IMG/VR virus record: IMGVR_UViG_3300036861_000610
Span: 83,890-147,889 of that record
Length of the DNA: 64,000 nt
Source of the DNA: a virus
Strand: one strand, 5' to 3'
Shown: in pieces, positions 32,331-55,016 of the stretch
How positions within the stretch are numbered: the stretch's first letter is position 1
Layout of the letters: every line of letters starts with the position of its first letter
Notes under the pieces: generated by a model
Seen by the model: the letters and a program-made list of their open reading frames with translations, nothing else
Databases searched by the model: none
What the model was told of the DNA's origin: nothing
Made by a program: the position numbers and the translations under genes

Positions 32331-33596
32331 TCAAACCGTGGCGCCGCTGGCGTTCACAGTACGGCCATTTGCGTCGTTGATGTTTCCGGACCAGGCGATG
32401 TTGGGGTCGACGCACTCGTCCGTCAAGCCGTAGGTGGCCGAGTGCTCGTTGCCTGTCTTGGCTGGATAGAAACGGTTGTTCCGTACGATCCAGTTTTTGC
32501 CGTTTTCGCTGCAGTACAGCGTGTAGGCGCCCGCGGACAAGAAGTTGTTCTCGATCGTCCACCCGCTGTTCTTGTCCGGGTTAGTGATGATCGAGGAGGT
32601 GATTGGGTTGACTCCGGCGAATGTGTTGTGCCGGATGAGCACCCCATTGCCGCCTTGCGACTGGATGTCGTCGCCGTGCCCCTCAGAGGTTGCCTCGCGG
32701 GCCGACAGGTACGAGTCGATGACGGAGGAGCCTTCGCCCATCTCCAGTGCGTTCTCGCAGTCGTGGATGTACACCCGCGAGGCCGCGAAGCGCGCCCAGG
32801 CGATGCCGGTTCCACGACCGTCCTTGCAGTTGACCTCGGAGTCACTGATGGTCAAGCTGCCGTTGCCAGTCATCTCCACGCCGTAGAAGCATGGCCCAAT
32901 GATTCGGCTGTTGCGGATGATGACGTTGGGCGCCGCGACAGTGATGCAACCCATCGCCTTGCCGTCGATCACCGTGTTGGCGGTGGTGATTCGCTGCGGC
33001 CCCGTGTATGGGGTCAGCGTCAGCACCTTCACGCCAGTTGAGCCGCCGGGTCCGGCTGTGGGGTAACCACAGGCCGCGAGCCGGTCGAAGCAGCCGGTCA
33101 GCACCGTTCCTGGCGGCGTGGTGGCTGGGGGTGTAGTCGCCGGGGGTGTGGTGACCGGTGGTGTTGTTGCCGGCGGGGTGGTGACCGGTGGTGTTGTTGC
33201 CGGCGGGGTGGTGACCGGTGGTGTGGTCGTGGGTGGTGCTGTAGTTGTGGGTGGCGGCGTGGTTGCCGGCGGCGTAGTGGGCGTTGCCGTGGGGCTGGTG
33301 GATGGAGTCGGCGAAGCCGTGGGGCTTGCCGACGGGCTGACCGTCGGGCTGGTGGACGGTGCGGCAGGCGGTGGACCGATGCAGGTCAGCGTCACCGTGA
33401 ATGTGCCATCGGGCGCCACGGGGGCACTGACGGGCTTGTCGCATTCGACGGTGGGCTGTGCGCTGAACGTCCGGGCCGCGTACCCAGCGGTGGCTGGACC
33501 GGCAATGAACCATGCGACCGCGAGGGCTGGGATGAGCCAGCGCGGTGTAGTAATTCGCCGATACCAGGGCTCTGGTGCTGCGTGTCTTGGTGCCAT
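32331..33596 (-). CDS. Secreted or anchored right-handed beta-helix protein (421 aa)
   Basis: Short basic start, then a membrane/signal segment (WLIPALAVAWFIAGPATAGY). A long Thr/Pro linker follows, with repeated TTPPVTTPPATTPP units (residues about 90-160), and then a pectate-lyase-like parallel beta-helix (ITTANTVIDGKAMGCITVAA, VIIRNSRIIGPCFYG, VEMTGNGSLTISDSEVNC, WTIENNFLSAGAYTLYC). ATG follows GGAAGGAAAAGTACCGACA; the frame is open a little further upstream. It would be exported and could bind or degrade extracellular polysaccharide. Unusual cargo for the early region of a phage. Confidence 0.8.
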   Translation of the reverse strand: MAPRHAAPEPWYRRITTPRWLIPALAVAWFIAGPATAGYAARTFSAQPTVECDKPVSAPVAPDGTFTVTLTCIGPPPAAPSTSPTVSPSASPTASPTPSTSPTATPTTPPATTPPPTTTAPPTTTPPVTTPPATTPPVTTPPATTPPVTTPPATTPPATTPPGTVLTGCFDRLAACGYPTAGPGGSTGVKVLTLTPYTGPQRITTANTVIDGKAMGCITVAAPNVIIRNSRIIGPCFYGVEMTGNGSLTISDSEVNCKDGRGTGIAWARFAASRVYIHDCENALEMGEGSSVIDSYLSAREATSEGHGDDIQSQGGNGVLIRHNTFAGVNPITSSIITNPDKNSGWTIENNFLSAGAYTLYCSENGKNWIVRNNRFYPAKTGNEHSATYGLTDECVDPNIAWSGNINDANGRTVNASGATV

Positions 33597-38399: not shown

Positions 38400-39104
38400 C
38401 TACGCAGCAGCAGCGGCCGTGCCACCGGCCTTGGCCGGCACCGCCTTCTTGACGGTGCCCTTCTTGGCTCCGGCCGCCGTCTTCTTGGGTGGTGTCTGTC
38501 GGGCGGTCTTCTTGGTCGGCGCCTCAGCGACAGCTTCCATGACCTCCGCGGGCGGCTCCTTGGCCGCTTCGAGCTGCGCGAGGTGGGCGGCGATGGCGGC
38601 GGCGAACTCGTCGGACCAGCCGGTCACTTCCTTGGTGACGAGCTGCTCCCGGGTGTTGCCGTAGTAGTCGCGGCCGGCGGCGTTGAAGCCGTACTTGTCG
38701 AAACCGTCGCGGTTGTAGCCGTTCTTGTCGTAGCCGTCACGGTTGAAGCCGTAACGGTCGAGGCCGTCCTTGTTGAAGCCGTTGGGGTCGTAGCCGTCCC
38801 GGTTGAAGCCCTCGATGTTGCGGCCACTCTTGGCGTTGTAGCCGGACGAGTCGGGGAAGCCGTACCGGGGCGCGTTGATGCCGAGGATGTGAGCGAAGGT
38901 GATTTCGGCGTTCTCGCAGAAGTACTTCTCCCTAGCGAATCGCGCCATGCGGTCCATGATGTAGGGCAGTACCGCATTCATCTCGTCGGCGGTGGGGACC
39001 CGCGCCTCGTAGGGTCCGGTGGGGAGTGCGAGTTGCTTCCCCAGCTCCCGGGCCTTTTCCCAGGAGCGCGGGTCCCCGTTTGTGACGTCTGCCAAGCCTG
39101 CCAT
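38400..39104 (-). CDS. [YF][ND]xxG pentapeptide-repeat protein B (234 aa)
   Basis: Same plan as its neighbours: helical domain (ADEMNAVLPYIMDRMARFAR), repeat block (GYNAKSGRNIEGFNRDGYDP, GFNRDGYDKNGYNRDGFDKY), a TREQLVTKEVTGWSDEF helix, then a Lys/Ala/Pro-rich basic tail (KKTARQTPPKKTAAGAKKGT) that may bind nucleic acid. RBS GGGAGG upstream. Confidence 0.8.
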   Translation of the reverse strand: MAGLADVTNGDPRSWEKARELGKQLALPTGPYEARVPTADEMNAVLPYIMDRMARFAREKYFCENAEITFAHILGINAPRYGFPDSSGYNAKSGRNIEGFNRDGYDPNGFNKDGLDRYGFNRDGYDKNGYNRDGFDKYGFNAAGRDYYGNTREQLVTKEVTGWSDEFAAAIAAHLAQLEAAKEPPAEVMEAVAEAPTKKTARQTPPKKTAAGAKKGTVKKAVPAKAGGTAAAAA

Positions 39105-44556: not shown

Positions 44557-44585
44557 AGTATCAGGGGAGGGTAGGGGTACGTCAA
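44557..44585 (-). promoter_or_regulatory. Strong leftward promoter
   Basis: TTGACG-17-GATACT on the minus strand, with TAGGGGT (on +) inside the spacer. It drives the run of genes from 44476 leftward. Best-matching promoter in the window; it overlaps the end of the DUF2493-like gene by 4 nt. Confidence 0.65.
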
Positions 44586-45004
44586 GGGTTGATCAAAGAA
44601 AGTTGCTGGTCAAGGCACCTCGGCCGCCAGGGCGTGCTCCGCACCTCGATGCCGGCCCGGCGGGCCAGATTCATGCAGTTGATCGTCCCCCGAGACCCGG
44701 GCCCCGGGAACCCGAGACAGACCGCGGCCCCCAGGTTGACCATCTTGGCGTTGCGCTCGGGCCCCAGGATGCGGCCGTTTACCTTGCGGGCTGGGTGAGG
44801 TTCAACCTTGAAGCCGTGGGCGATGGCCCACTGCTCGGACCAGAGATCGGCACCGCCGTACTCACACTGGCCGTGGACCAGAACGAACTCAGCTGGAAGT
44901 TGGCAAGCTACTACAAATTCGTCGAGTTTCTGCCAGACGATGTCCTTGTCGGCCTCGGGCCAGTCCCTCCAGCCGGTGGTCAAAATTCTTACAGGAAGTT
45001 CCAT
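44582..45004 (-). CDS. DUF2493/YspA-like SLOG-family protein (140 aa)
   Basis: VRILTTGWRDWPEADKDIVW, VHGQCEYGGADLWSEQWAIA, ERNAKMVNLGAAVCLGFPGP and GTINCMNLARRAGIEV match the DUF2493 member of the SLOG nucleotide-binding superfamily. SLOG proteins bind nucleotides or their derivatives, often in stress or defence systems. Bordered upstream by a short pentamer array. Confidence 0.85.
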   Translation of the reverse strand: MELPVRILTTGWRDWPEADKDIVWQKLDEFVVACQLPAEFVLVHGQCEYGGADLWSEQWAIAHGFKVEPHPARKVNGRILGPERNAKMVNLGAAVCLGFPGPGSRGTINCMNLARRAGIEVRSTPWRPRCLDQQLSLINP

Positions 45005-45025: not shown

Positions 45026-45093
45026 CCCTAACCAGACCATGCCCTGCCGTGCCACGCCGGACCTAACCCGACCGAACCTGACCCCACCGAGTT
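45026..45093. repeat. Degenerate pentamer array A (short)
   Basis: About 68 nt of GCCNN/ACCNN units on the + strand (CCTAACCAGACCATGCCCTG, CCGGACCTAACCCGACC), i.e. GGNNN on the transcribed strand. It fills the gap between the gene at 45094 and the DUF2493-like gene. Confidence 0.8.
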
Positions 45094-45636
45094 TTACTCC
45101 TCGATGCCGTGACGTCGGAGCATCTCGACAAGGCGATCGAGGCGATCATCTTTGACCAAGGCATCCTTCTCCGTGAGAGCCTGGCGCTTGTCCAGCCGAA
45201 CAACCTGACGCTCGGTCTTTAACTGTCGCCGAGTGAGCTGGTTCATCATCTCTTCCTGTCGGGCAAGATGAAGCTCGATGGCGCTAAGCCGGCGACGTTC
45301 GGCCGAGTCGAGGCGAGTCTGGTCCACGAAGGTAACAAGTCGCTTAGCTCGACGCGTGCTTCGCCGAGACTTTGCCTGCTGATTCAGCCCCAGTCGCTCC
45401 TGCTCCCGTGACTCCACCATCCGATAGCCAACCTTGCGAACTCGGTCGAAGGCTCGCAGATGCTCCGTAAGCATGCGACCTGCGGCATAGTAAAAGGCCC
45501 CACGGACAGAGGCCTTCGGAGTACCGGGCAACAGGTTGTGCAGGGTCTCGTCTGAGACCACGTCGTCAATCTGCATGGTCCGCAGGTGGTCAAAGATGAC
45601 CTGCCACTGGGGCCGAGTTTCCTTGCTTTGGAACAT
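45094..45636 (-). CDS. Hypothetical basic coiled-coil protein (180 aa)
   Basis: N-terminus WQVIFDHLRTMQIDDVVSDE followed by a helix with GTPKASVRGAFYYAAGRMLT, which could be a winged-helix type DNA-binding part. From residue 85 it is Arg/Lys/Gln-rich coiled coil (ERQVVRLDKRQALTEKDALV). Flanked on both sides by pentamer arrays. RBS GGGAGG. Confidence 0.7.
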   Translation of the reverse strand: MFQSKETRPQWQVIFDHLRTMQIDDVVSDETLHNLLPGTPKASVRGAFYYAAGRMLTEHLRAFDRVRKVGYRMVESREQERLGLNQQAKSRRSTRRAKRLVTFVDQTRLDSAERRRLSAIELHLARQEEMMNQLTRRQLKTERQVVRLDKRQALTEKDALVKDDRLDRLVEMLRRHGIEE

Positions 45637-45646
45637 CTTTTGGCCT

Positions 45647-45931
45647 CCCCACCTAACCGAACCTAGCCCAACCTAGCCTTGCCCGACCTGACCCAACCGA
45701 ACCAAGCCAAGCCCGAGGCCCCTACCCAGCCCAACCCCACCAAGCCGGGCCTGACCGTACCGAACCACAGAAGCCTTACGGTACCCAACCTCACCGGACC
45801 GAACCGCGCCCAGCCAGGCCATAGAAGCTTGTGCCCCCCGACTCCCTACCAAACCCAGCCATGCCCCACCGGACAATGCCTGACCACGCCTAGCCTGACC
45901 GCACCAAACCACACCATGCGGAACCCAACCA
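45647..45931. repeat. Degenerate pentamer array B
   Basis: About 285 nt with a 5-nt phase of CC dinucleotides on the + strand (ACCTAACCGAACCTAGCCCA, CCAAGCCAAGCCCGAGGCCC). It has no convincing gene; frames through it are low-complexity Pro/Thr/Asn runs. It fills the whole gap between the stop of the gene at 45937 and the ribosome site of the gene at 45636. Confidence 0.85.
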
Positions 45932-45936
45932 AAAAG

Positions 45937-46527
45937 CTAGACGACTTCTACGGCAGCATCAAAGCGCCCATACTGCTGCCTGTAGTCGCCAAATCCATAA
46001 AGCTTTCCACCGATAACGGCAATATCGGTCAGTTCGTCGGCATCAATGACGCCAGGGTCGAGCACGATGTCAGATTCCATCGACCAGTTCTTGAACATGG
46101 GCCGGCAGCGGTCAATCTTCGCCTGGCCGACACGGGCGGAGCGGAAGTCAACAAACTCACTGGCCCCACTGTCACCCCAGAGCCCTTCAATGGTGCGTGG
46201 GCCTTTGTATAGCAGCGGATGGACAAGTTCGACGATGACGATGCCGCCCTCGATCTTCTTGCCGCGCCGGCCCGATCGAGCAGCTTCGAGAAGGTTCTTG
46301 AAGATCCAGCTGGCCGGGATGTACGGGCCGATGCCTTCCTCGAAGTACAGGCCGCCCTCCCACTCCACGCGCGCAATCTCCAACCGATCCTCGTCAGTGC
46401 GCTTGCTCGACGGCTTGGCCTTGTTGAGGCGCGACATCTCCTTGGCGAAGGGGTCGAGCGGTGAAGCAAGGCGCACGTTGTGCATGAGCAGTGGACGTGT
46501 GCCGGTCGCCGTCAGTCTGACCTTCAT
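45937..46527 (-). CDS. GTxPLLxH family protein 1, RAMP-like candidate (196 aa)
   Basis: Begins KVRLTATGTRPLLMHNVRLA, middle region YIPASWIFKNLLEAARSGRR and IVIVELVHPLLYKG, and a C-terminus IDRCRPMFKNWSMESDIVLD with a glycine-rich loop GGKLYGFGDYRQQYGRF. The same blocks occur in the protein at 53243 (GTSPLIIHR, RYRPEFSEW, GVGEWRPEKKGDMG). The glycine-rich loop after a beta-strand resembles that of RAMP/Cas7-type folds; I infer a nucleic-acid-binding role but no family search was done. ATG chosen over upstream Pro-rich frame. Confidence 0.8.
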   Translation of the reverse strand: MKVRLTATGTRPLLMHNVRLASPLDPFAKEMSRLNKAKPSSKRTDEDRLEIARVEWEGGLYFEEGIGPYIPASWIFKNLLEAARSGRRGKKIEGGIVIVELVHPLLYKGPRTIEGLWGDSGASEFVDFRSARVGQAKIDRCRPMFKNWSMESDIVLDPGVIDADELTDIAVIGGKLYGFGDYRQQYGRFDAAVEVV

Positions 46528-46555
46528 GATGGTTCTCTCTCCAGGAGCTGGTGAA

Positions 46556-46867
46556 CTAGTAGGGTCGACTTTCGGTGAGTAGCCTGGCCACGGTGGCGGC
46601 CGTCTGGCCGGTCTCCCGGGCAATGTCTTGGGGCATCATGCCGTTCTGCCTGGCAGCCCTGGCAGCAGAGCGACGAATGGTGGCAGTTCCGCCCATTAAC
46701 TGATCTCGCATCAGGGCAATAACTTCGCCCGCAATAACGATGGTTTGCACTTCGTCGTGGCCGGTGAGGATAGTGGTCAGGCACGCCCGTAGCTGGGCTT
46801 GGGCTGGTGTGTCGACCCACTCGTCCGGTGGCCTCAGTGTGTCTTCGACGAGTTGGTCTTTGATCAT
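46556..46867 (-). CDS. HTH protein (103 aa)
   Basis: C-terminal helix-turn-helix (MPQDIARETGQTAATVARLL) of a sigma/Xre-like type preceded by a helical domain (ACLTTILTGHDEVQTIVIAG). Probably a DNA-binding regulator for this region. RBS AGGAGGTCCACCAC. Confidence 0.75.
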   Translation of the reverse strand: MIKDQLVEDTLRPPDEWVDTPAQAQLRACLTTILTGHDEVQTIVIAGEVIALMRDQLMGGTATIRRSAARAARQNGMMPQDIARETGQTAATVARLLTESRPY

Positions 46868-46914
46868 GTGGTGGACCTCCTGGTGGTGCGCTAACGCTCT
46901 TGGCGGATGCGAAG

Positions 46915-46943
46915 ATCGTAGCTTAGGGGGACGTCCGGGTCAC
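46915..46943 (-). promoter_or_regulatory. Leftward promoter before the HTH gene
   Basis: GTGACC-17-TACGAT on the minus strand. TAGGGGG (on +) sits in the spacer, as in the promoter at 44557. The 118-nt gap between genes holds nothing else. Confidence 0.55.
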
Positions 46944-46985
46944 GATCCTGACCTGCGGTTTTCCCTAGTCCTCCTCGTCGTCACA

Positions 46986-47438
46986 TCACCATGGCGCGGC
47001 CTCATACAGCAGGTCGAACCCGTCGTACTCGGGCAGTAGCTGAAGGTCGCAGCCAGTGCAACTGAGTCCTCGTGGATCTTCCAGATGACACTGGCCGCAG
47101 TCGCACTGGCCCTGCCTGTCCTCGCGCTCCCACCGATGTTCGTGTGGCGGCGCCGATACAGCACTGCCCCCAGCTACGGCGCGCTGTTCCTCGCGGTAAG
47201 CAACCTCATCGGCGTAGTCCCCCAGAATGTCCATGTGGGCAAGAAGCCGGAACCCCCACTGGGCATGCCACTCCCACTGCCAGGATGGCCTCTTGATCCA
47301 CGCAATATCGTCCAGTTCCCCCTCGTACGGCTCAAGGATGTAGTAGCGGCTGTACCCGGGGACCCAGTTCAAGGTGTACATCACCGCGCCGCAGAACCAG
47401 AACCAGAACGGCTTCATCCGCGGCTGGTAGCGGGTCAC
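46986..47438 (-). CDS. Hypothetical protein with membrane-like N-terminus and Cys cluster (150 aa)
   Basis: FWFWFCGAVMYTLNWVPGYS is an amphipathic or membrane-touching segment. CDCGQCHLEDPRGLSCTGCD near the end holds four or more cysteines for zinc. GTG start shares bases with the upstream stop. Confidence 0.65.
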   Translation of the reverse strand: MTRYQPRMKPFWFWFCGAVMYTLNWVPGYSRYYILEPYEGELDDIAWIKRPSWQWEWHAQWGFRLLAHMDILGDYADEVAYREEQRAVAGGSAVSAPPHEHRWEREDRQGQCDCGQCHLEDPRGLSCTGCDLQLLPEYDGFDLLYEAAPW

Positions 47439-47779
47439 CCTTCTGCTCCTTCAGCCTCCGACTGTCGCAGCCAGTTCTCGATCATGTCTTTGAGAAGGAC
47501 AGTGAGCATCATGCGCAGGTCGTTTTCGTCCATCACCTGAAGGAAGTAGGCCAGCTGGCCGGGTACACAGTAGGGGGGACAGTCATGTCCGTCTTCACGG
47601 TGGTCTTTGACTATGACCAGGAAGACGTTGATGGCGTCGCGAACAGCCATCACGTTGGAGGTGGCGATGATCTGTTCTTCCAGGTCCAGGTCACGGGTAC
47701 GGAAGTGCGACGCATCCACCAGGGGCGGAACAACCGGCTCTGGACCTTCATTTCGGCGGCGACTCCATGGCCACTTCAT
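47435..47779 (-). CDS. Hypothetical helical protein (114 aa)
   Basis: Begins MKWPWSRRRNEGPEPVV; ATG 47779 fits the GGGAGG site 8 nt upstream better than an earlier GTG. Helical C-terminus (LAYFLQVMDENDLRMMLTVL). Unknown function. Confidence 0.7.
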   Translation of the reverse strand: MKWPWSRRRNEGPEPVVPPLVDASHFRTRDLDLEEQIIATSNVMAVRDAINVFLVIVKDHREDGHDCPPYCVPGQLAYFLQVMDENDLRMMLTVLLKDMIENWLRQSEAEGAEG

Positions 47780-48023
47780 CGTCTTCACCTCCCGGGAAAC
47801 GCAGGATTGTGGGCCAGTTCTGCTTCAGTTCTTCAATGTCTTCCGGCGTGAGCGTTCCGTGCCGCTTGCAGTCCCGACATTCTTTGCCTGGATTGTGGCC
47901 CACGGAGTACAGCACGTCGGTATGCCGATTGAACCAGCGACATCGCAGCAGAAATGCCGAGCGAAACACCCGGTCACGCCACCGGGTGTCCCACTCGATC
48001 CGTACATTGCGGAAAATTCTCAT
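47748..48023 (-). CDS. Hypothetical basic protein (91 aa)
   Basis: Arg-rich start (RIFRNVRIEWDTRWRDRVFR), then ECRDCKRHGTLTPEDIEELK with a CxxC. Overlaps the next gene by 32 nt. No family recognised. Confidence 0.65.
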   Translation of the reverse strand: MRIFRNVRIEWDTRWRDRVFRSAFLLRCRWFNRHTDVLYSVGHNPGKECRDCKRHGTLTPEDIEELKQNWPTILRFPGGEDDEVAMESPPK

Positions 48024-48304
48024 GGACTGACGTCCTGGATCATGGCCTCTAGCTTGCGCAAGGTGGCCAACATTGCGTCGTGTTGTTCAATGGGCGTTGG
48101 CGGTTCGTATGGGTCCCGCTGGCACCGGGCGCAGTCACTGACCGGATGGTCATAGACCGTTACGAGGTGGTAGCAGTCAGGTCGGCCGGCAACATTCGGG
48201 TGGCATAGGGGTAGCAAATTATGTTCCCCGAAGCCGCCCTCATAGTCGCCCATCTGGCGTCCACAGTGGGTGCAGACATTGGGCCGGATGAACTCCACCT
48301 CCAT
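48020..48304 (-). CDS. Zinc-binding hypothetical protein (94 aa)
   Basis: VCTHCGRQMGDYEGGFGEHN, CHPNVAGRPDCYHLV and DCARCQRDPYEPP give three Cys/His pairs. ATG 48304 is preceded by GGGGGAC; an ATG four codons earlier is possible. Confidence 0.7.
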   Translation of the reverse strand: MEVEFIRPNVCTHCGRQMGDYEGGFGEHNLLPLCHPNVAGRPDCYHLVTVYDHPVSDCARCQRDPYEPPTPIEQHDAMLATLRKLEAMIQDVSP

Positions 48305-48325
48305 TGCGTCCCCCATTTCCGGGTT

Positions 48326-48520
48326 TTAGTCGAACTCGCCGGCCTTCACGCCGACCAACCACGCCTTCCATTCCGCGGACGTGAAACGCAGAAGTGGGCC
48401 ATTTGGGTCCTTCGAATCACGCACCAGTCGATCGGTGCCATCGAGTGCAACTTGGACGCATTCCGAGCTGGTGGCACTGTCGCTAGACTTGCGCCACTCC
48501 AGGTCGGTTTGTTCGTTCAT
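48326..48520 (-). CDS. DUF397 protein (64 aa)
   Basis: LEWRKSSDSATSSECVQVAL, then VRDSKDPNGPLLRFTSAEWK and AWLVG match the DUF397 family. It is abundant in Streptomyces, where members such as BldB pair with Xre regulators in developmental control. ATG 48520 follows AAGGAGG. Rare as phage cargo. No Xre partner sits beside it. Confidence 0.9.
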   Translation of the reverse strand: MNEQTDLEWRKSSDSATSSECVQVALDGTDRLVRDSKDPNGPLLRFTSAEWKAWLVGVKAGEFD

Positions 48521-48533
48521 GAATTCCTCCTTG

Positions 48534-48989
48534 TCACAGGTTTTCTTGAATAATCTTCTTGGCTTCGGCCACCATGCCACTGACCTCGTGCACCGCATTG
48601 CGCAGCGTGCGGTGCGGGTTGCTCGGCAGCTCCAGTTCGGTTACCAGAGTCTCGATGGATTCCCTGATCTCGCTCTCCAGGCCGATGAGCTTGGCGATCT
48701 GCAGGTCAATCTGGTCGCGCTGCCCGGCCATGGTGCGAACCAGTTCAGCACTAGCAGCCTGGCTGGCCAGAAGGGCCTCTTCGATGACCACCCGCAGAGT
48801 CATTGCCTCATTACGATCCAGGCCGAAAGAGTCTTGAATCTGCCGGACGGCGCTTCGATTGGCCCGGTCCAGCTCTTCAGCCTTGGCTTCCAGGACCCGG
48901 ATGCGGTCCTTCTGGCCAATCTCATCGCGGGCCCACTTGGACAGCGTTGCCTGGATATCCTCCAGGCGAACTTCAATCGCCACAGTCAC
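48534..48989 (-). CDS. Hypothetical coiled-coil protein (151 aa)
   Basis: Long helices (VLEAKAEELDRANRSAVRQI, LRVVIEEALLASQAASAELV, LESEIRESIETLVTELELPS). GTG start. Structural or adaptor role possible. Begins inside the small membrane gene that precedes it. Confidence 0.7.
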   Translation of the reverse strand: MTVAIEVRLEDIQATLSKWARDEIGQKDRIRVLEAKAEELDRANRSAVRQIQDSFGLDRNEAMTLRVVIEEALLASQAASAELVRTMAGQRDQIDLQIAKLIGLESEIRESIETLVTELELPSNPHRTLRNAVHEVSGMVAEAKKIIQENL

Positions 48990-49128
48990 ACTCCGACTTC
49001 CTGAAAACGAACACGCCTACGAAGATCAATAGTCCAACGCCAAGGGCCATCAGTACCAGTCCCAGGACCTTGAACGCATCAACGTAGTCGACGGGGTTGA
49101 TAGCGCTGAGGCTATCGAGTACGTTCAT
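48973..49128 (-). CDS. Single-pass membrane protein (51 aa)
   Basis: Reads MNVLDSLSAINPVDYVDAFK, then a membrane helix (VLGLVLMALGVGLLIFVGVF) and FRKSECDCGD. ATGA coupling with the gene at 49125 fixes the start. Overlaps the next gene by 17 nt. Confidence 0.7.
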   Translation of the reverse strand: MNVLDSLSAINPVDYVDAFKVLGLVLMALGVGLLIFVGVFVFRKSECDCGD

Positions 49129-49529
49129 GGTGCCATCACCGGTAAAGCTGTCACGTTTATCGCATTCACCCAGGCTGGTTTGGTTCGCTTCTTATTGGAC
49201 CAGGCGCCAGACGTTTTCTCGGTGAGGACCTGGACCTCAATTTCCCAGCCGGTAGGGGTATCGGACCTCGTACGAGTCGCCTCTACCCAGGTGTAGTTGT
49301 AGGTTTCCCGGGCACGAATGAGGCGGACTTCACCGATGGCCATGACCTGGCCGCGGCCGGCGCCGATGCAGTACAGGACTTTGCCGCCGACGGTGAACCG
49401 CTGACCTAGCCAGTCAACCGCGGAGGTGACGTGGGTGAGCCAGGGGCTGCCCCCGTAGGTGCCTTCAACGAAGGCAGGGATGGGGCCGAACTCGGGAGAG
49501 TGTGGCCACCGGAGCTGTTCCTGGGTCAT
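49125..49529 (-). CDS. Hypothetical beta-rich protein (134 aa)
   Basis: Begins MTQEQLRWPHSPEFGPIPAF; a barrel-like central part (GQRFTVGGKVLYCIGAGRGQ, VRLIRARETYNYTWVEATRT). Starts within TGATG after a short gene. Function unknown. Confidence 0.7.
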   Translation of the reverse strand: MTQEQLRWPHSPEFGPIPAFVEGTYGGSPWLTHVTSAVDWLGQRFTVGGKVLYCIGAGRGQVMAIGEVRLIRARETYNYTWVEATRTRSDTPTGWEIEVQVLTEKTSGAWSNKKRTKPAWVNAINVTALPVMAP

Positions 49530-49630
49530 CAGCCGCGCCGGTGTCCTTCGCCGTCAATGCCTACGTCGCCATTGACCCAGACGGCATCCCCGACTTCAAC
49601 GACTGGCCCGGCGGCGTTTGTTGTCGACAC
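49529..49630 (-). CDS. Small protein (33 aa)
   Basis: VSTTNAAGPVVEVGDAVWVN followed by GDVGIDGEGHRRG. GAAGGAGCAGGAAC precedes the GTG; its TGA overlaps the next ATG. The only support is ribosome site and coupling. Confidence 0.5.
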   Translation of the reverse strand: MSTTNAAGPVVEVGDAVWVNGDVGIDGEGHRRG

Positions 49631-49988
49631 GTTCCTGCTCCTTCACCTTCTTCACCATGTCGTCCAAGGTGAGTTCTGTTTGCTCGCTGCGGCCGATGAT
49701 CCCGGCTTGGCAGAGGTGGTCGTAGGCGCCGATGATGCTGGCGTAGCAGATGCCCAGCTCGGCTGCCTTCTGGGCCCGATAGGTGTAGTGCTGGGCTACC
49801 TCAAACCGTTGGTCTGTAAGCACGGCCCACGCCAGGTTCATGCGCTCATGTGCCTCGTCCAGCACAGTGCTGAGTGCTCTGGCGGTGCCGGCCAGCCGAC
49901 TGCGGCCAGAAGAGAAAGCGCTGATGGCTTTCTGCGCCTGCTCGACCCGACGGACCATCGACTGGTACTCAGCGTCACGGTCGATCAC
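49596..49988 (-). CDS. Hypothetical helical protein (130 aa)
   Basis: Helix-rich (QAQKAISAFSSGRSRLAGTA, RMNLAWAVLTDQRFEVAQHY, ELTLDDMVKKVKEQERVDNK). GTG start overlaps the upstream gene by 4 nt. Unknown function. Confidence 0.65.
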   Translation of the reverse strand: MIDRDAEYQSMVRRVEQAQKAISAFSSGRSRLAGTARALSTVLDEAHERMNLAWAVLTDQRFEVAQHYTYRAQKAAELGICYASIIGAYDHLCQAGIIGRSEQTELTLDDMVKKVKEQERVDNKRRRASR

Positions 49989-50476
49989 CGGACCAGTTCC
50001 TCAATTTCACGGGCCAAGTTGCCTCCACGGGGTGTGTTGCGTTCATGCCATCCGGCTGCGTGCGCGTCTCGTTCCGGCCACTCGATCTGTCGGCGAACCT
50101 TCTCGGCCAACTCCAACAGCACCACCAGGATCTCGTCGTCGTCGCGGCTCTCTTCAACGATGGCGAGCATCCAGTCAGCCACTACACCGAGGACACGGTT
50201 GATGCGCTTCTCCAGCAGCTGCGGCATGCCCGGCGGCGGGTCCACGCCGGGGGTCAGTCTGCTCCACGGCTCGGAGGCGTACAGCATCTCCCGCAGGGTC
50301 TTCACCTGAGCTTTCGTCTCAGGGTCTTCGGCGGGCGCAGGAACCAGCTCGATGATGAAGCCACCGATCTCGACGCCGGCTGAAGCGCTGCCGGCGCCAC
50401 CTGGGTCGTCAGGGTCGAAGCTGTGACGGCTGGTTGGTCCCAGGAGCAGGTCGCCAGACTGGTCTTCCTCAAACAT
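49985..50476 (-). CDS. Hypothetical protein (163 aa)
   Basis: Starts MFEEDQSGDLLLGPTSRHSF; contains a hydrophobic strand (GVEIGGFIIELVPAPAEDPE) and helices (RINRVLGVVADWMLAIVEES). Strong RBS GGAGAGAAACAC. No family recognised. Confidence 0.7.
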   Translation of the reverse strand: MFEEDQSGDLLLGPTSRHSFDPDDPGGAGSASAGVEIGGFIIELVPAPAEDPETKAQVKTLREMLYASEPWSRLTPGVDPPPGMPQLLEKRINRVLGVVADWMLAIVEESRDDDEILVVLLELAEKVRRQIEWPERDAHAAGWHERNTPRGGNLAREIEELVR

Positions 50477-50696
50477 GTGTTTCTCTCTCCAGGATTGCTG
50501 TGCACTGCTTGCATGGCTCGCGTTCAGCGAGGCCCTCGGGATCTGAATGCCACTTCGCTCGGGGCGGGAGTGCGGCCAGGACCTGGCAGCCGCAGACGGC
50601 CGATTCCATGGGCTCGCCGGGTAGGTTTTTGTCGGCCAAGATGATGAGGTGCTTCTTCTTGCCGGTGCGCAGGTAGAACCAGGCGCGCGGGCTCAC
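50469..50696 (-). CDS. Hypothetical protein (75 aa)
   Basis: GTG at the overlap with the upstream gene (GTGA) gives VSPRAWFYLRTGKKKHLIIL, then CGCQVLAALPPRAKW and CKQCTAILERE with CxC/CxxC cysteines. Longer upstream frame shadows the neighbour. Confidence 0.65.
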   Translation of the reverse strand: MSPRAWFYLRTGKKKHLIILADKNLPGEPMESAVCGCQVLAALPPRAKWHSDPEGLAEREPCKQCTAILERETHV

Positions 50697-50929
50697 GGCT
50701 TTGGCCTCCCGGCGGCTCGGCGGCCGGCGACAACCCTGCGGGCTCGCTTCGGACCATCCAGAGAAACCGAGTCGTCGTCGACCATGAAGACGACAGGCGC
50801 GGAGACGGAGGGGCTGTCGCTGGCGAGCATGATGATCTGGATGGGGTTGTTGATCTTGTGTTGGCAGTCGCACCAGGTGCCACCGCGGCAGTCATCATGT
50901 AACTGTTCCCTGCATTTCGGACAAACCAT
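50693..50929 (-). CDS. Zinc-ribbon-like protein (78 aa)
   Basis: MVCPKCREQLHDDCRGGTWC and DCQHKINN carry several Cys/His; the C-terminus is basic (PKRARRVVAGRRAAGRP). ATG 50929 or GTG 50935 as start. Nucleic-acid binding plausible. Confidence 0.65.
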   Translation of the reverse strand: MVCPKCREQLHDDCRGGTWCDCQHKINNPIQIIMLASDSPSVSAPVVFMVDDDSVSLDGPKRARRVVAGRRAAGRPKP

Positions 50930-50992
50930 GACCACCTAGTCCTATCTTGTAGAGGGGTTGGGTAGATCTTCCCTCGTCGAGCCCCAACTACG

Positions 50993-51484
50993 CTAGGGGG
51001 TGGTGGGGGTGTTATTTCCGTGTGCCTGGCAGTCGCCGTCCTCGCTGTGCTGACTGAAGAGGTGACCGCAGGGGCAACGCTGCGTGGGGGTCAGGTGCAG
51101 CGGCACAGTCTTCGGTATCTTCGTCGGCTCGTCGAGCGTCTCCTCCGAACTGTGCCAAAAATTGAACCTCCAGATCGTCTCATTGAGACAGGTGCACTGG
51201 CCGTTGGCGATCTTCTCCTGGTGCTTGAGCCAGCGCTCAGCCTCCAGGTCGTAGGTCTGCTGGCGCATGGTGTGACAGCACTGCTTCCAGCAGGTCCGGT
51301 ACGCCCAGGAGAGGTACCCGATCCAGCTGAGGCCGACGGTGACGACCATGCGTCCCCACTCGTCGGCGCCGAACTGTGGCCAGCCGAACTTGTGGCGCCA
51401 GTGCGGATCCCAGTCGTGGCGGCTGTTCGTCCAGACTCGATCGGAGGTGTACCACTGGTCTTCTTTTCTGGGGCGGTGAGTCAT
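50993..51484 (-). CDS. Hypothetical protein (163 aa)
   Basis: Trp/His-rich N-terminus (TSDRVWTNSRHDWDPHWRHK), a hydrophobic segment (MVVTVGLSWIGYLSWAYRTC), then CTCLNETIW and a C-terminal CPCGHLFSQHSEDGDCQAHG zinc-knuckle. ATG follows AGGGGGTC. Immediately downstream of pentamer array C. Confidence 0.65.
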   Translation of the reverse strand: MTHRPRKEDQWYTSDRVWTNSRHDWDPHWRHKFGWPQFGADEWGRMVVTVGLSWIGYLSWAYRTCWKQCCHTMRQQTYDLEAERWLKHQEKIANGQCTCLNETIWRFNFWHSSEETLDEPTKIPKTVPLHLTPTQRCPCGHLFSQHSEDGDCQAHGNNTPTTP

Positions 51485-51782
51485 TGTTAGACCCCCTATT
51501 TCCAAATTTTCTGGGAGGCGATTTTCAAATCAACGCATCGATGTACTTAGACTCATGTATGCCTGCCAAGCCAAGCCCCACCTAGCCGAACGTTGCCCTG
51601 CCTGCCGCACCGCGCCTACCGGACCGTGCCGAGCCATGCCATCCCCACTATGGCCTCACCGTGCCTGCCCTGCCGTACCAAGCTTCAACAGACCCAGCCC
51701 CGCCTCACCTGCCCCGCCTCACCGTGCCTGACCAAAACACACCTCGCCTGCCGTGCCTTGCCTAGCCCCGCCTTACCTACCT

Positions 51783-51811
51783 AGCCACACCTTGTCGTTG
51801 TGGACCCCGCC
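51783..51811. repeat. 29-bp exact direct repeat inside array C, copy 1
   Basis: The segment starting AGCCACACCTTGTCGTTGTG is repeated exactly at 52062-52090. It contains an inverted pair (CCACA/TGTGG). Recent duplication inside the array is likely. Confidence 0.85.
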
Positions 51812-52061
51812 ACGCCTGCCCTGCCAAGCCGAACCATTCCACGCCTGACCGTGCCTGCCGGGCCGCACCTTGCCATGCCAAAGGACGCCGAGCCCTGTCA
51901 CGCCGAACCTGCCGTACCCCACCATTCCCCGCCGAGTCCTACCTCGCCTGCCATGCCACGCCGGGCCGTAACCAACCTTGCCGGATCTTGCCCTGCCTGC
52001 CACGTCATGCCATGTCGAACCTCGCCAAGCCCATCCGAAACTCGCCTGCCCCGCCGCACCC

Positions 52062-52090
52062 AGCCACACCTTGTCGTTGTGGACCCCGCC
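52062..52090. repeat. 29-bp exact direct repeat inside array C, copy 2
   Basis: Second copy of the segment at 51783; both end in GGACCCCGCC and are followed by different pentamers. Confidence 0.85.
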
Positions 52091-52781
52091 TTGTCACGCC
52101 GTGCCATGCCTGCCCTACCACACCTAGTCGGACCCGAACTCGCCTAGCCGATACCCACCGCGCCTGCCCCGCCGTACCTTGACTTGCCGCGCCATGCCAG
52201 AACTAGCCCTCGCCTCGCCTGCCACGCCTTGTGAAACCTAACCCCACCAAACCGAGCCGGACCCCGTCTTGTTAAACCCAGCCAAGCCCTACCCCAGCCA
52301 CGCCTGCCACACCATGCCCCGCCGAGCCTTTCCTCACCACACCGCACCGGGGCTGCCGCACCTAACCTCACCGCGCCATGTCTCGCCATGCCTGCCCAGC
52401 CGTAACGCCCCTCACCGTGCCCAACCTCGCCATGCCTGCCGAACCTTGCCTCGACGTACCCAGCCCTACCGGGTCCTACCGCCACCTCACCGCGCCTGCC
52501 GAACCTGGCCATATGCTGCCGTGCCGAACCCCGCCACGCCTGCCTAGCCATACCTCGCCGAGCCCCGCCCCCCCCTAGCCTGCCTAGCCGCGCCTCGTTT
52601 CACCCCACCGAGCCTTGTCACAACGCGCCACACCTGCCTCACCCAACCGCACCATGCCATGCCATGACGAACCACGCCTGCCGCGCCCTACGATGCCTTG
52701 CCACAACCGGTATTTCCCTGCCATGCCTGCCTTGCCTTGCCGCACCATGCCTAGATAGCCGAGCCGCACCTGCCATGTCCT

Positions 52782-53219
52782 TCAGGCTTCAATCAGGACA
52801 CCGACCCGAACTTCACTCTCAACGAGATCCCAGAATTCCTCGAAGTTCTCGTAGCGACGCTTCAAGGCCTCCCAGTCACGTCGCATCTCTGCCCTAAGTA
52901 GGCGCATGATCATTGGATCCTGGATAACGACCGCGGCCGGCTCGTAGGCGTACTTCCTCGTCCCATCGTCCTTTTTCACTGCATGGAAGGCGCGAATGGA
53001 GATGGGGTTCCCCGTCTTGGGGCTGGTGTAGTTCACCCGCACGGACCTGATCAGGTCGTGCGCTTGGACACGGCGGTACTTTTCCGCCGCGATGGTGTTG
53101 TTCCACTCGAACCTTGTGTGGAGTGGGTGACGGTTGTCGCGGGCAACATCCACAACAAGCGCGGGAGTCAGTTCCCCGCGCTCGTCGTAGATGGCCTGCA
53201 GGTGATCCCGCAGACTCAT
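52782..53219 (-). CDS. Hypothetical protein (145 aa) beside the pentamer arrays
   Basis: SLRDHLQAIYDERGELTPAL, then VRVNYTSPKTGNPISIRAFH and a C-terminal helical part (RLLRAEMRRDWEALKRRYEN). Strong RBS AGAAGGAG. Its 3' end abuts array C and its neighbour upstream is the GTSPLIIHR protein, so the two form a small operon between two arrays. Function unknown. Confidence 0.7.
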   Translation of the reverse strand: MSLRDHLQAIYDERGELTPALVVDVARDNRHPLHTRFEWNNTIAAEKYRRVQAHDLIRSVRVNYTSPKTGNPISIRAFHAVKKDDGTRKYAYEPAAVVIQDPMIMRLLRAEMRRDWEALKRRYENFEEFWDLVESEVRVGVLIEA

Positions 53220-53242
53220 GGAACTCCTTCTACTGCCGTGTT

Positions 53243-53887
53243 CTACTTCTGGACGTCCTTGTTGGTGAGGACCTCGATGTCACGCTCCGGGTCGATCATG
53301 TAGGTGCCCATGTCGCCCTTCTTCTCCGGCCGCCACTCCCCGACGCCGACGCCCATGCCTCCGGCGTCGATGAGGGACAAGACGGAGGCCTGCGTCAGCT
53401 GTGAGGTCACGTAGGTGACCCGCAGCTCGGTCTTCCACTCCGAGAATTCGGGGCGGTAACGCAGGTCGGTGCCGCCGTTGCCGACGCGCACGACGTCTTC
53501 GCGCTTCTTGGGCTCGCCTTCGATGATGGCGAGCTGCTGCCCATCCACGCCGACCTCACCGCGGAAGAACAGCACCTGCCGGAGCAGGGTCATCGTGACT
53601 CCGGCGAAGAACCGTGCGCCGCCGATGGTCGATGCCTTGAAGGCGATAACCGGAAGCCCGTACGCGCCATCGTTGGTGCGGTAGAACGCCGCCTCGTACT
53701 CGGCGTCGGGGTCCTTCGGCTGCTTGGGGGTCTTGCGCCCCTGCATCGCGTCGAGCATCTGCTTCTTCGCCTTCTCGGAGAAGCGGTGGATGATCAGCGG
53801 CGACGTCCCCACGATGGGGACGATGAGCGTCTCCGCGTCGATGCGAGGGATCTCGATGATGTTGGTTGTCTTTGCTGCCGTTGCCAT
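53243..53887 (-). CDS. GTxPLLxH family protein 2, RAMP-like candidate (214 aa)
   Basis: IVPIVGTSPLIIHRFSEKAK starts the fold; GLPVIAFKASTIGGARFFAG, LRYRPEFSEWKTELRVTYVT and GGMGVGVGEWRPEKKGDMG repeat the blocks of the protein at 45937. The glycine-rich loop near the C-terminus recalls RAMP proteins. Strong RBS TGGAGGAG. Preceded on the transcript by array D. Confidence 0.8.
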   Translation of the reverse strand: MATAAKTTNIIEIPRIDAETLIVPIVGTSPLIIHRFSEKAKKQMLDAMQGRKTPKQPKDPDAEYEAAFYRTNDGAYGLPVIAFKASTIGGARFFAGVTMTLLRQVLFFRGEVGVDGQQLAIIEGEPKKREDVVRVGNGGTDLRYRPEFSEWKTELRVTYVTSQLTQASVLSLIDAGGMGVGVGEWRPEKKGDMGTYMIDPERDIEVLTNKDVQK

Positions 53888-53925
53888 GGGTTACTCCTCC
53901 AGGAGTGTCTACTTAGGACGTTTCC

Positions 53926-54853
53926 CATGCCGTGCCGCACCATGCCTTCCTCTCCGAGGAGAGGCTGTACCTTTCCTGACTCGCCTGCCTAGACGTGCCA
54001 AGCCTTCCCGGGCCGGGTCTCACCGAGCCAAGCCACACCTCACCTGCCCCACCCCGCCTAGCCTGCCAAACCGCGCCGTGCCACGACGAACCACGCCTGC
54101 CAAGCCATGCCCTGCCTTCACGTACCCCGCCAAACCGAGCCTGCCCTGCCGGACCAAACCCCAACTCCCCGAACCTGGCCACGCCACGCCCCGCGATGCC
54201 TGCCGAACCCCGCCTTACCCGAAAGAGCCGGGACTTGCCACGCCTGCCCTGCCTCGCCGGACGGTGCCTTACCCAAACGAAACGTGCCGTGCCGCGCCTG
54301 CCTTGCCCTACCATTGCTTGCCGCACCGGGCCTAGCCACAACACACCTCACCTGCCGTACCGAACCGCACCGGATCGAGCCGGGCCCTACCTGCCATGCC
54401 TCTCCTAGCCACACCCCGCCTCGCCTGCCATGCCCGACCCAGCCCCTCCTAACCCCTCGGCGCCGTGCCCCACCTGCCCTACCGCTCCGGACCATTACAC
54501 GCCTGACCGTGCCTAGCCACATCCCGCCTGCCTCACCACATCAAGCAAGCCTCGCCACACCTCGCCCTGCCTGCCATGCCACATCGCGCCAAGCCCAGCC
54601 TTACCATTCCTGCCGGACCGAGCCTTGCCAAGCCCCACCTGACCCCTCCTGACCAGACCGTGCCTGCCGGGCCGCACCCCGCCTCGTCCAGCCTCACCTC
54701 ACCTGCCATGTCGTGCCGCATCACGCCACGCCTCAACTCGCCCCACCTGCCATGCCGAGCCGTGCCATTACTAACCACTCCGAGCCCTACCTCACCTGCC
54801 CAGCCCTGCCTAGCCACATGAAGCCGCGCCCTGTGAAGCCCAACCCCACCACG
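53926..54853. repeat. Degenerate pentamer array D (0.93 kb)
   Basis: Same unit as the other arrays (CCTGCCAAACCGCGCCGTGC, CCTCGCCACACCTCGCCCTG). No gene; frames through it are low-complexity. It fills the gap between the stop codon of the gene at 54855 and the leader of the gene at 53887, where a short hairpin breaks the pattern. Confidence 0.9.
53949..53964. repeat. Hairpin at the array D end next to the gene leader
   Basis: CCTCTCC and GGAGAGG form a 7-bp stem around GA, separating the array from the leader of the downstream gene. It may stop array structure spreading into the ribosome site. Confidence 0.5.
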
Positions 54854-54854
54854 C

Positions 54855-55016
54855 CTATTGCCGAGTGTCGATGCTGAACGAGAAGCGGCCAAGACTGATC
54901 ATGAAGGTGAACATGTCGCCGCCCCAGCTGATCCAGACCCAGCCGTTGTCACTTTTGTAGGCGGGTCCCTGCTCGGGACTGCGAGTGAGGATGCGGCGGG
55001 GGATGAAGTTTTTCAT
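54855..55016 (-). CDS. Small hypothetical protein (53 aa)
   Basis: MKNFIPRRILTRSPEQGPAY, GWVWISWGGDMFTFMISLGR and FSFSIDTRQ. ATGA coupling with the next upstream gene fixes the start. Beta-rich; unknown function. Followed at once by array D. Confidence 0.65.
   Translation of the reverse strand: MKNFIPRRILTRSPEQGPAYKSDNGWVWISWGGDMFTFMISLGRFSFSIDTRQ

What the first reader, a model, noticed from the sequence alone, without database searches (positions are those of the whole stretch)
45026..54853. Non-coding arrays of degenerate 4-5-nt units in leftward-transcribed gaps
Seen: arrays A (68 nt), B (285 nt), C (1,215 nt) and D (928 nt) consist of CC-phased units, mostly GCCNN, on the + strand. On the transcribed strand they read GGNNN/NNGGC. 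Units vary strongly, so it is not a simple satellite, yet the 4-5-nt spacing is held for over a kilobase. GG every 5 nt could form two-tier G-quadruplexes with short loops in the mRNA or in single-stranded DNA. The arrays fit exactly between stop codons and ribosome sites. In a phage with genes otherwise overlapping, 2.5 kb of such filler must have a cost, so a function (RNA decoy, replication or packaging signal, transcription pause, host-factor sponge) is likely. I do not recognise it from described systems.
Basis: partly seen in the sequence, partly recalled or inferred. Interest (0 to 1): 0.9.

Follow-up and report, generated by a model that had tools for sequence, protein, structure and literature searches.

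The report
Phage guide-RNA arrays of VIPR type
The odd GG-every-five-letters stretches in this actinobacterial phage are arrays of guide RNAs for VIPR, a CRISPR-like system first reported in 2026 with which phages probably silence rival phages, and this phage carries two such systems side by side.

Summary
Arrays A-D hold CC every 5 nt on the + strand (lag-5 autocorrelation 0.45-0.67, background -0.01); a fifth array lies elsewhere in the phage. They are best read as vrRNA arrays of VIPR systems (preprint PMC13142463, 2026): GGY triplets on the transcribed strand are bound by the RAMP protein Vipr, and the random NN letters are a noncontiguous guide to DNA. Evidence: the window has two Vipr genes (53243-53887, 45937-46530) matching the solved SUSP1 Vipr with a Csm3/Cas7 fold. 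Vipr occurs in 73 of 87 viral loci found by array sequence alone, against 3 of 120 control loci. The two Viprs belong to different clades with different neighbour proteins. Array positions, more than sequences, are kept in a relative. One regularity is not in the preprint's main text: in C and D a 4-nt unit (GGCAGG in RNA) breaks the pitch about every 49 nt, and other phages use other breaks, probably marking guide boundaries. No convincing target was found for the guides searched. New member of a known kind.

The parts
45027..45091 (-). Array A: 13 YNNGG units in the RNA sense (- strand); the length of one vrRNA
45094..45636 (-). Family 3 protein (180 aa, phrog_5926 at 2.1e-8), probable vap of system 2; the family profile matches the gene after Vipr in phages wV8, LittleE and Trine
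45647..45933 (-). Array B: 58 parsed units, 49 of them clean; no CCTG marks; GGU-rich (26 of 41 five-nt units)
45937..46530 (-). Vipr-2 (197 aa, phrog_4652); phmmer against SUSP1 Vipr 36pp_D E=5.1e-23
51562..52777 (-). Array C: vrRNA array with 23 CCTG pitch breaks, mean gap 53 nt
52782..53219 (-). Family 2 protein (145 aa, phrog_15946), probable vap of system 1
53243..53887 (-). Vipr-1 (214 aa, phrog_4652), Cas7/Csm3-like RAMP fold
53925..54857 (-). Array D: vrRNA array with 19 CCTG pitch breaks, mean gap 45 nt
54154..54198 (-). Nine units in D whose 18 NN letters are all the same in relative L298, while the three differences fall on GGY positions; NN letters do differ outside these nine units

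Best explanation
The arrays are vrRNA arrays of two VIPR (Viral Interference Programmable Repeat) systems in one actinophage. SHOWN HERE: the YNNGG grammar on the transcribed strand; random NN; two Vipr homologues with a RAMP fold beside the arrays; tight linkage of Vipr to such arrays across phages; a different neighbour protein for each Vipr clade. INFERRED from the preprint on SUSP1: the array is transcribed as guide RNA, Vipr subunits line up along it on the GGY motifs, and the exposed NN pairs specify a gapped DNA target (two read, one skipped); binding represses transcription of a rival phage, satellite or prophage. INFERRED by me: system 1 (Vipr-1, family 2, arrays C and D, probably E in trans) strings many guides of about 10 units without separate tails and separates them by a 4-nt unit that breaks the pitch; system 2 (Vipr-2, family 3, arrays A and B) is of the SUSP1-like clade and has no such marks.
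For: Grammar: 4,947 five-nt units that begin with CC (of 5,612 parsed, 87 viral loci) have position 3 uniform (.26/.24/.25/.26) and position 5 G .87, A .10; the triplet in a slot between two clean units is GCC in 77.8% and ACC in 10.7% of 3,983. The preprint gives vrRNAs as 9-16 YNNGG repeats with conserved GGY and hypervariable NN. Protein: a profile of 42 family members hits PDB 36pp_D 'SUSP1 Vipr protein' at E=1.5e-36; Vipr-2 alone 5.1e-23 over its length, Vipr-1 alone 4.6e-5 over its C-terminal part. The Vipr-1 model (pLDDT 94.6) matches 76 PDB chains at E<=1e-3, and all 50 rows shown are from CRISPR effector complexes or their RAMP subunits; best Z 12.4, rmsd 3.3 over 155 residues, Csm complex. 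Linkage: Vipr in 73 of 87 loci with degenerate arrays, 45 of 51 with at least 1.5 kb on both sides; 3 of 120 bacterial-contig control loci, all three among the 4 that had a degenerate array. The 27 Mycobacterium records with an array hit are the same 27 with a Vipr-1 homologue; some phages count twice. Strand: 149 flanking genes GG-sense against 37; 48 of the 64 Vipr proteins lie within 200 bp of an array and all 48 are GG-sense. In 4 of 4 phages fetched through the protein outside the array searches (wV8, LittleE, Trine, ODay) an array lies beside Vipr.
Against: No convincing DNA target: three window guides gave 0 exact one-skip hits in viral contigs and one of them 0 of 397 genomes of an actinobacterial order with up to 1 mismatch. 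A conserved F1 guide gave 2 hits in contigs of 37% and 49% GC with the skip base at the first codon position, so probably chance, and none in 4 genomes. In 2.5 Mb of local sequence, skip 1 gave the most near-matches (320 at 16 or more of 18 letters, against 251, 265 and 236 for skips 0, 2, 3), but not against unit-permuted guides (131 against 110.8, sd 12.8); skip 2 at 15 or more was the only excess there (904 against 830, sd 24). 14 of 87 degenerate-array loci show no Vipr, 6 of them with full context. In C some stretches between marks are 2 or 16-18 units long. No expression data.
Confidence: 0.93

Rival explanations
1. GG every 5 nt forms two-tier G-quadruplexes or R-loops in RNA or non-template DNA, which act as a pause, origin or stability element.
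For: GG-sense orientation; many two-tier motif starts in A-D: 14, 51, 184, 146.
Against: Does not explain Y after GG, uniform NN, regular pitch breaks, or linkage to a RAMP protein. Three-tier motifs: 0, 2, 0, 1 in A-D.
Confidence: 0.02
2. The arrays are binding sites or a sponge for an oligomeric RNA- or DNA-binding protein (like TRAP sites or stoperators, both recalled), and NN is neutral.
For: Triplet plus two free bases, about 10 units per module; NN looks random; no target found for NN.
Against: The linked protein is a Vipr homologue, and for SUSP1 the preprint shows that NN specifies the target. In one block alignable with L298, 18 of 18 NN letters are kept while three changes fall on GGY (block chosen after the fact, and NN differs next to it).
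Confidence: 0.04
3. Neutral degenerate satellite made by slippage.
For: Single-unit gain and loss between F1 phages BobaPhett and DRBy19.
Against: Adjacent units are no more alike than chance (450 against 440 expected); only 4 of 99 arrays from bacterial contigs are degenerate, against 89 of 152 from viral contigs (nine-unit and seven-unit patterns, both scans capped at 120 stretches); synteny.
Confidence: 0.01

Closest known systems
VIPR systems (Vipr + vap + vrRNA; Escherichia phage SUSP1, PMC13142463)
   Same: YNNGG vrRNA grammar on the coding strand, Vipr RAMP homologue, small accessory gene, phage-borne, intergenic arrays.
   Different: Two Viprs of different clades in one phage; an orphan array E; C and D are long continuous arrays with a 4-nt pitch break about every 49 nt rather than separate ~100-nt RNAs with a 3' tail. 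The preprint mentions staggered and hammerhead-interspersed arrays in supplementary figures that I could not read, so C and D may be one of those.
F1 mycobacteriophages (Donkeykong, BobaPhett, Quico and others) and Gordonia phages UmaThurman, Pipp, ODay
   Same: Vipr-1 homologue (49-64% identity) with a GGY/NN array beside it; CCTG marks also seen in the F1, UmaThurman, Pipp and ODay arrays; records call the genes hypothetical.
   Different: One array in each region fetched; not described as VIPR in the records fetched.
Class 1 CRISPR-Cas (Csm3/Cas7 RAMPs)
   Same: Fold of the backbone protein; multiple guides in an array.
   Different: No repeat-spacer structure: repeated 15-mers make up 3.3% of C and 0.2% of D; in VIPR the guide is read in NN pairs, not as an uninterrupted stretch (preprint).

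Membership tests
VIPR | Vipr protein homologous to SUSP1 Vipr | tested here: met
VIPR | RAMP (RRM/Cas7-like) fold of that protein | tested here: met
   Vipr-1 only: model pLDDT 94.6; Foldseek and VIA, Csm3/Cas7 chains on top
VIPR | vrRNA of alternating GGY/NN on the transcribed strand | tested here: met
   for the grammar, 41 and 42 for the strand; transcription itself not tested
VIPR | 9-16 repeats per vrRNA | tested here: inconclusive
   A has 13 units; C and D run on with marks at a mean gap of 53 and 45 nt (about 9-11 units), some modules shorter or longer
VIPR | accessory (vap) gene beside vipr | tested here: met
   families 2 and 3 beside arrays and Vipr; that these are the preprint's numbered vaps was not tested
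VIPR type II (SUSP1 clade) | invariable structured 3' tail after the repeat tract | tested here: inconclusive
   the 30 nt after A-D look unrelated by eye, no alignment made; no Rfam match at 44-56 kb
VIPR | DNA target by the 1-nt skip rule | tested here: inconclusive
   no convincing target
VIPR | vrRNA expressed and bound by Vipr | not testable with these tools
   needs RNA sequencing and pull-down
CRISPR array | near-identical repeats separated by unique spacers | tested here: not met
   repeated 15-mers 3.3% of C, 0.2% of D; tandem repeat finder sees only short local matches in A-D
Satellite / microsatellite | neighbouring units more alike than chance | tested here: not met
   450 against 440 expected at lag 1

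The most novel reading that the evidence does not exclude
VIPR arrays carry punctuation: a phage-specific break of the 5-nt pitch about every 45-65 nt (CCTG, AACTGCCTTG, GACCGCC, CGAACCTTG, CGTTCCTYG, CCTGCGGTGCC on the CC strand) ends one guide and begins the next, so a single kilobase transcript holds about 20 guides with no separate tails or spacers. One actinophage runs two distinct VIPR systems (marked and unmarked) plus an orphan array in trans, giving it a guide repertoire of CRISPR size.
Probability: 0.4. Interest if true: 0.65.

Novelty: new member of a known kind. Interest (0 to 1): 0.5.

Why it matters
VIPR is a months-old discovery proposed as the ancestor of CRISPR. This phage shows that arrays can be far longer than the four ~100-nt RNAs of SUSP1, that two Vipr clades coexist in one genome, and that long arrays have internal marks that small-RNA mapping could test as guide boundaries. 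F1 mycobacteriophages and Gordonia phages with the same Vipr clade offer culturable models in laboratory hosts.

Tried and rejected
Simple satellite, slippage and G-quadruplex readings: see rivals. TRAP-like ring sites and stoperator-like operators were my working ideas before the protein link was found; they rest on recall and were dropped. Coding: the GCCNN pattern allows few stops in any frame (my reading of the pattern), but steps of 4, 5 and 6 nt and single-unit gains and losses argue against a kept frame. An Enterobacter plasmid hit is a plain GCCAC repeat. My first clustering linked proteins through array-encoded residues; it was repeated with those residues masked. Substitution counts by unit position are biased by register-shifted, non-independent F1 pairs and are not used. 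Target search: local scan, the same with unit-permuted controls, four exact viral scans, 4 and 397 genomes; nothing convincing. The fold of family 2 gave no PDB match at E<=1e-3, and its profile only a weak sequence hit to an ssDNA-binding protein (E=0.007); family 3 gave no PDB sequence hit better than 0.5 and was not folded. Array RNA of the first 60 units of C and D folds slightly less stably than NN-permuted versions (-104.9 against -114.4, sd 4.0; -117.3 against -123.8, sd 4.8); not pursued. Paper searches for the repeat itself, before the protein link, gave no description of it (one search listed a paper on a quadruplex-forming repeat of Xanthomonas and Nostoc, PMC4692102, listing only). 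My early note of a tRNA cluster beside array E was wrong: ARAGORN finds none, the RNAs look YrlA-like.
Full report
OBSERVATION. A detector built on R-CC-N-N units finds four arrays in the window and no others at its lower threshold: 45027-45091, 45647-45933, 51562-52777, 53925-54857, scores 33 to 435 against at most 12.7 in 12 Markov-simulated strands. CC autocorrelation at lag 5 is 0.67, 0.50, 0.45 and 0.45 against -0.01 in background. A fifth array lies in the same phage record outside the window, about 61.3-61.6 kb, on the opposite strand. It has no Vipr gene nearby: the family model finds only two copies in the record, both in the window.

GRAMMAR. In RNA sense the unit is Y-N-N-G-G. Over 4,947 five-nt units that begin with CC (of 5,612 parsed in degenerate arrays of 87 viral loci), position 3 is uniform, position 4 is poor in G on the CC strand (15%), and position 5 is G 87% and A 10%; the loci's flanks range from 37% to 75% GC. 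GC at position 3 follows flank GC only in part (Spearman 0.31, P=0.009, slope 0.49; position 4 not significantly). Neighbouring units are independent draws: NN identity at lag 1 is 450 against 440 expected. So the arrays are not made by slippage of a repeat, although single-unit gains and losses are seen between close F1 phages, and repeated 15-mers are somewhat above unit-shuffled levels in most long arrays.

PITCH BREAKS. Between clean units, 4-nt spacing is TG in 181 of 190 cases, and 6-nt spacing is rare (11 cases). The CCTG marks recur regularly: 195 gaps in the 28 arrays with at least four marks have a median of 49 nt; in window C and D the coefficient of variation is 0.25 and 0.22 against 0.89 and 0.87 for random placement; 16 of 28 arrays have P<0.05, Fisher combined 1e-26. 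The marks were noticed before they were tested, so the size of the effect, not the P value, is the argument. A wider scan for regularly spaced features gave 21 hits at P<0.003 in 823 tests (2.5 expected), among them breaks of other kinds. Read by eye, L082, L075, L128, L261 and L047 carry their own break, and L050 and L021 none that I recognise.

WHERE ELSE. A nine-unit scan of bacterial and archaeal contigs also hit its limit, but only 4 of 99 arrays are degenerate; most of the rest are simple repeats. The same nine-unit pattern in viral contigs again reached the limit; with its new loci, 87 of 155 viral loci have a degenerate array. Named hits are F1 mycobacteriophages and the Gordonia phage UmaThurman. 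Three F1-type relatives fetched because they matched only the downstream flank (Firehouse51, Squirty, DosHalletts) lack the array and have other genes abutting there. In relative L298, whose Vipr-1 is 94% identical, arrays of 503 and 508 nt sit where C and D sit; the genes between them are 81% identical, but blastn aligns only 70 nt of array. Distant relative L299 (34% identical) has a 245-nt array at the same place. Position and grammar are kept while content turns over.

THE PROTEIN. Clustering 1,155 proteins of 95 array-bearing loci, array-encoded residues masked, gave one family in 63 loci, a second in 23 and a third in 10. With an HMM search added, the first family is present in 73 of 87 degenerate viral loci (45 of 51 with full context) and in 3 of 120 control loci, which are three of the four controls with a degenerate array. 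Of 68 viral loci without an array passing my strict degeneracy rule, 34 also hold it. All 42 aligned members match phrog_4652, of unknown function. Its profile hits PDB 36pp_D, 'SUSP1 Vipr protein', at 1.5e-36; the next hit is at 0.05. The predicted structure matches Csm3 and Cas7 subunits.

IDENTIFICATION. The preprint PMC13142463, whose whole main text I read in four parts (supplement not read), describes VIPR: Vipr, an ancestral RAMP; vap genes; vrRNAs of 9-16 YNNGG repeats; recognition of double-stranded DNA by NN pairs with one skipped base between them; repression of satellites and prophages; seven types. Grammar, protein and genomic setting agree with what is in the window. A search for its terms found no other paper in the library. 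The main text does not mention a 4-nt pitch break.

TWO SYSTEMS. In a tree of 64 Vipr rows the window's two fall in different clades: Vipr-1 in a clade of 27 rows (18 with family 2; support 100/100), Vipr-2 in a clade of 12 rows (9 with family 3; 98/92); the tenth family-3 row, L256, lies elsewhere. The family 3 profile matches the gene after Vipr in wV8, LittleE and Trine, the family 2 profile that in ODay. At least two CCTG marks occur in 13 of 16 family-2 loci and 0 of 9 family-3 loci (Fisher 1e-4); of 60 loci with neither family, 22 have them. In the window C and D carry the marks and A and B do not. Vipr-2 is the closer one to SUSP1 Vipr. The marks are not confined to the family-2 clade: L085 and L106, inside the family-3 clade, have them too.

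TARGETS. None convincing. Three window guides, including the one kept in L298, have no exact one-skip match in viral contigs; one of them has none in 397 genomes of an actinobacterial order with up to 1 mismatch. An F1 guide has two exact matches that look like chance. In 2.5 Mb of local sequence skip 1 leads the raw counts, but real guides are not clearly above unit-permuted ones at skip 1, and the one excess is at skip 2. The portal protein's listed best matches are actinophages at 27-36% identity, so sampling of this phage's rivals is probably thin. The targeting step is therefore inferred from SUSP1, not shown here.

VERDICT. A well-spotted feature, now explained: a new member of a known but very recent kind, with a regular pitch break and a double system as the points worth testing.

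Noticed in passing
L312:407-2017 (-) and L011:761-1002 (-), same phage record, outside the window: A Ro60-like protein (Pfam TROVE E=1.9e-22, VWA) with YrlA-like RNAs upstream (Rfam YrlA 26 bits, below its cut-off of 69); by eye, tRNA halves appear in permuted order. Array E lies beside this locus.
   Followed up: partly
L011:1345-1640 (-), G000 about 61.3-61.6 kb: Array E, with CCTG marks at a mean gap of 48 nt, far from both Vipr genes: an orphan vrRNA array.
   Followed up: partly
L289:4048-4212, L007:5936-6322, L293:5814-6137, L297:4062-4250: Annotated hypothetical proteins in F1 and Gordonia phages (BobaPhett 51, Donkeykong 48, UmaThurman 40, Zizzle 53) lie in or on the arrays and are probably spurious genes.
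   Followed up: no
L087 contig (G008), flank GC 37%: A low-GC phage contig with GGY/NN arrays near both ends, on opposite strands.
   Followed up: no
window 38682-38810 and 33112-33265: Tandem repeats of 15/30 nt and 18 nt found by TRF, possibly coding.
   Followed up: no
window 44582-45004 (-): SLOG-family (YspA-like) protein directly downstream of array A.
   Followed up: no
window 45700-45935 (array B): By eye, array B is interrupted two times by a similar AGAAGC(C)TT stretch, perhaps its own kind of separator.
   Followed up: no
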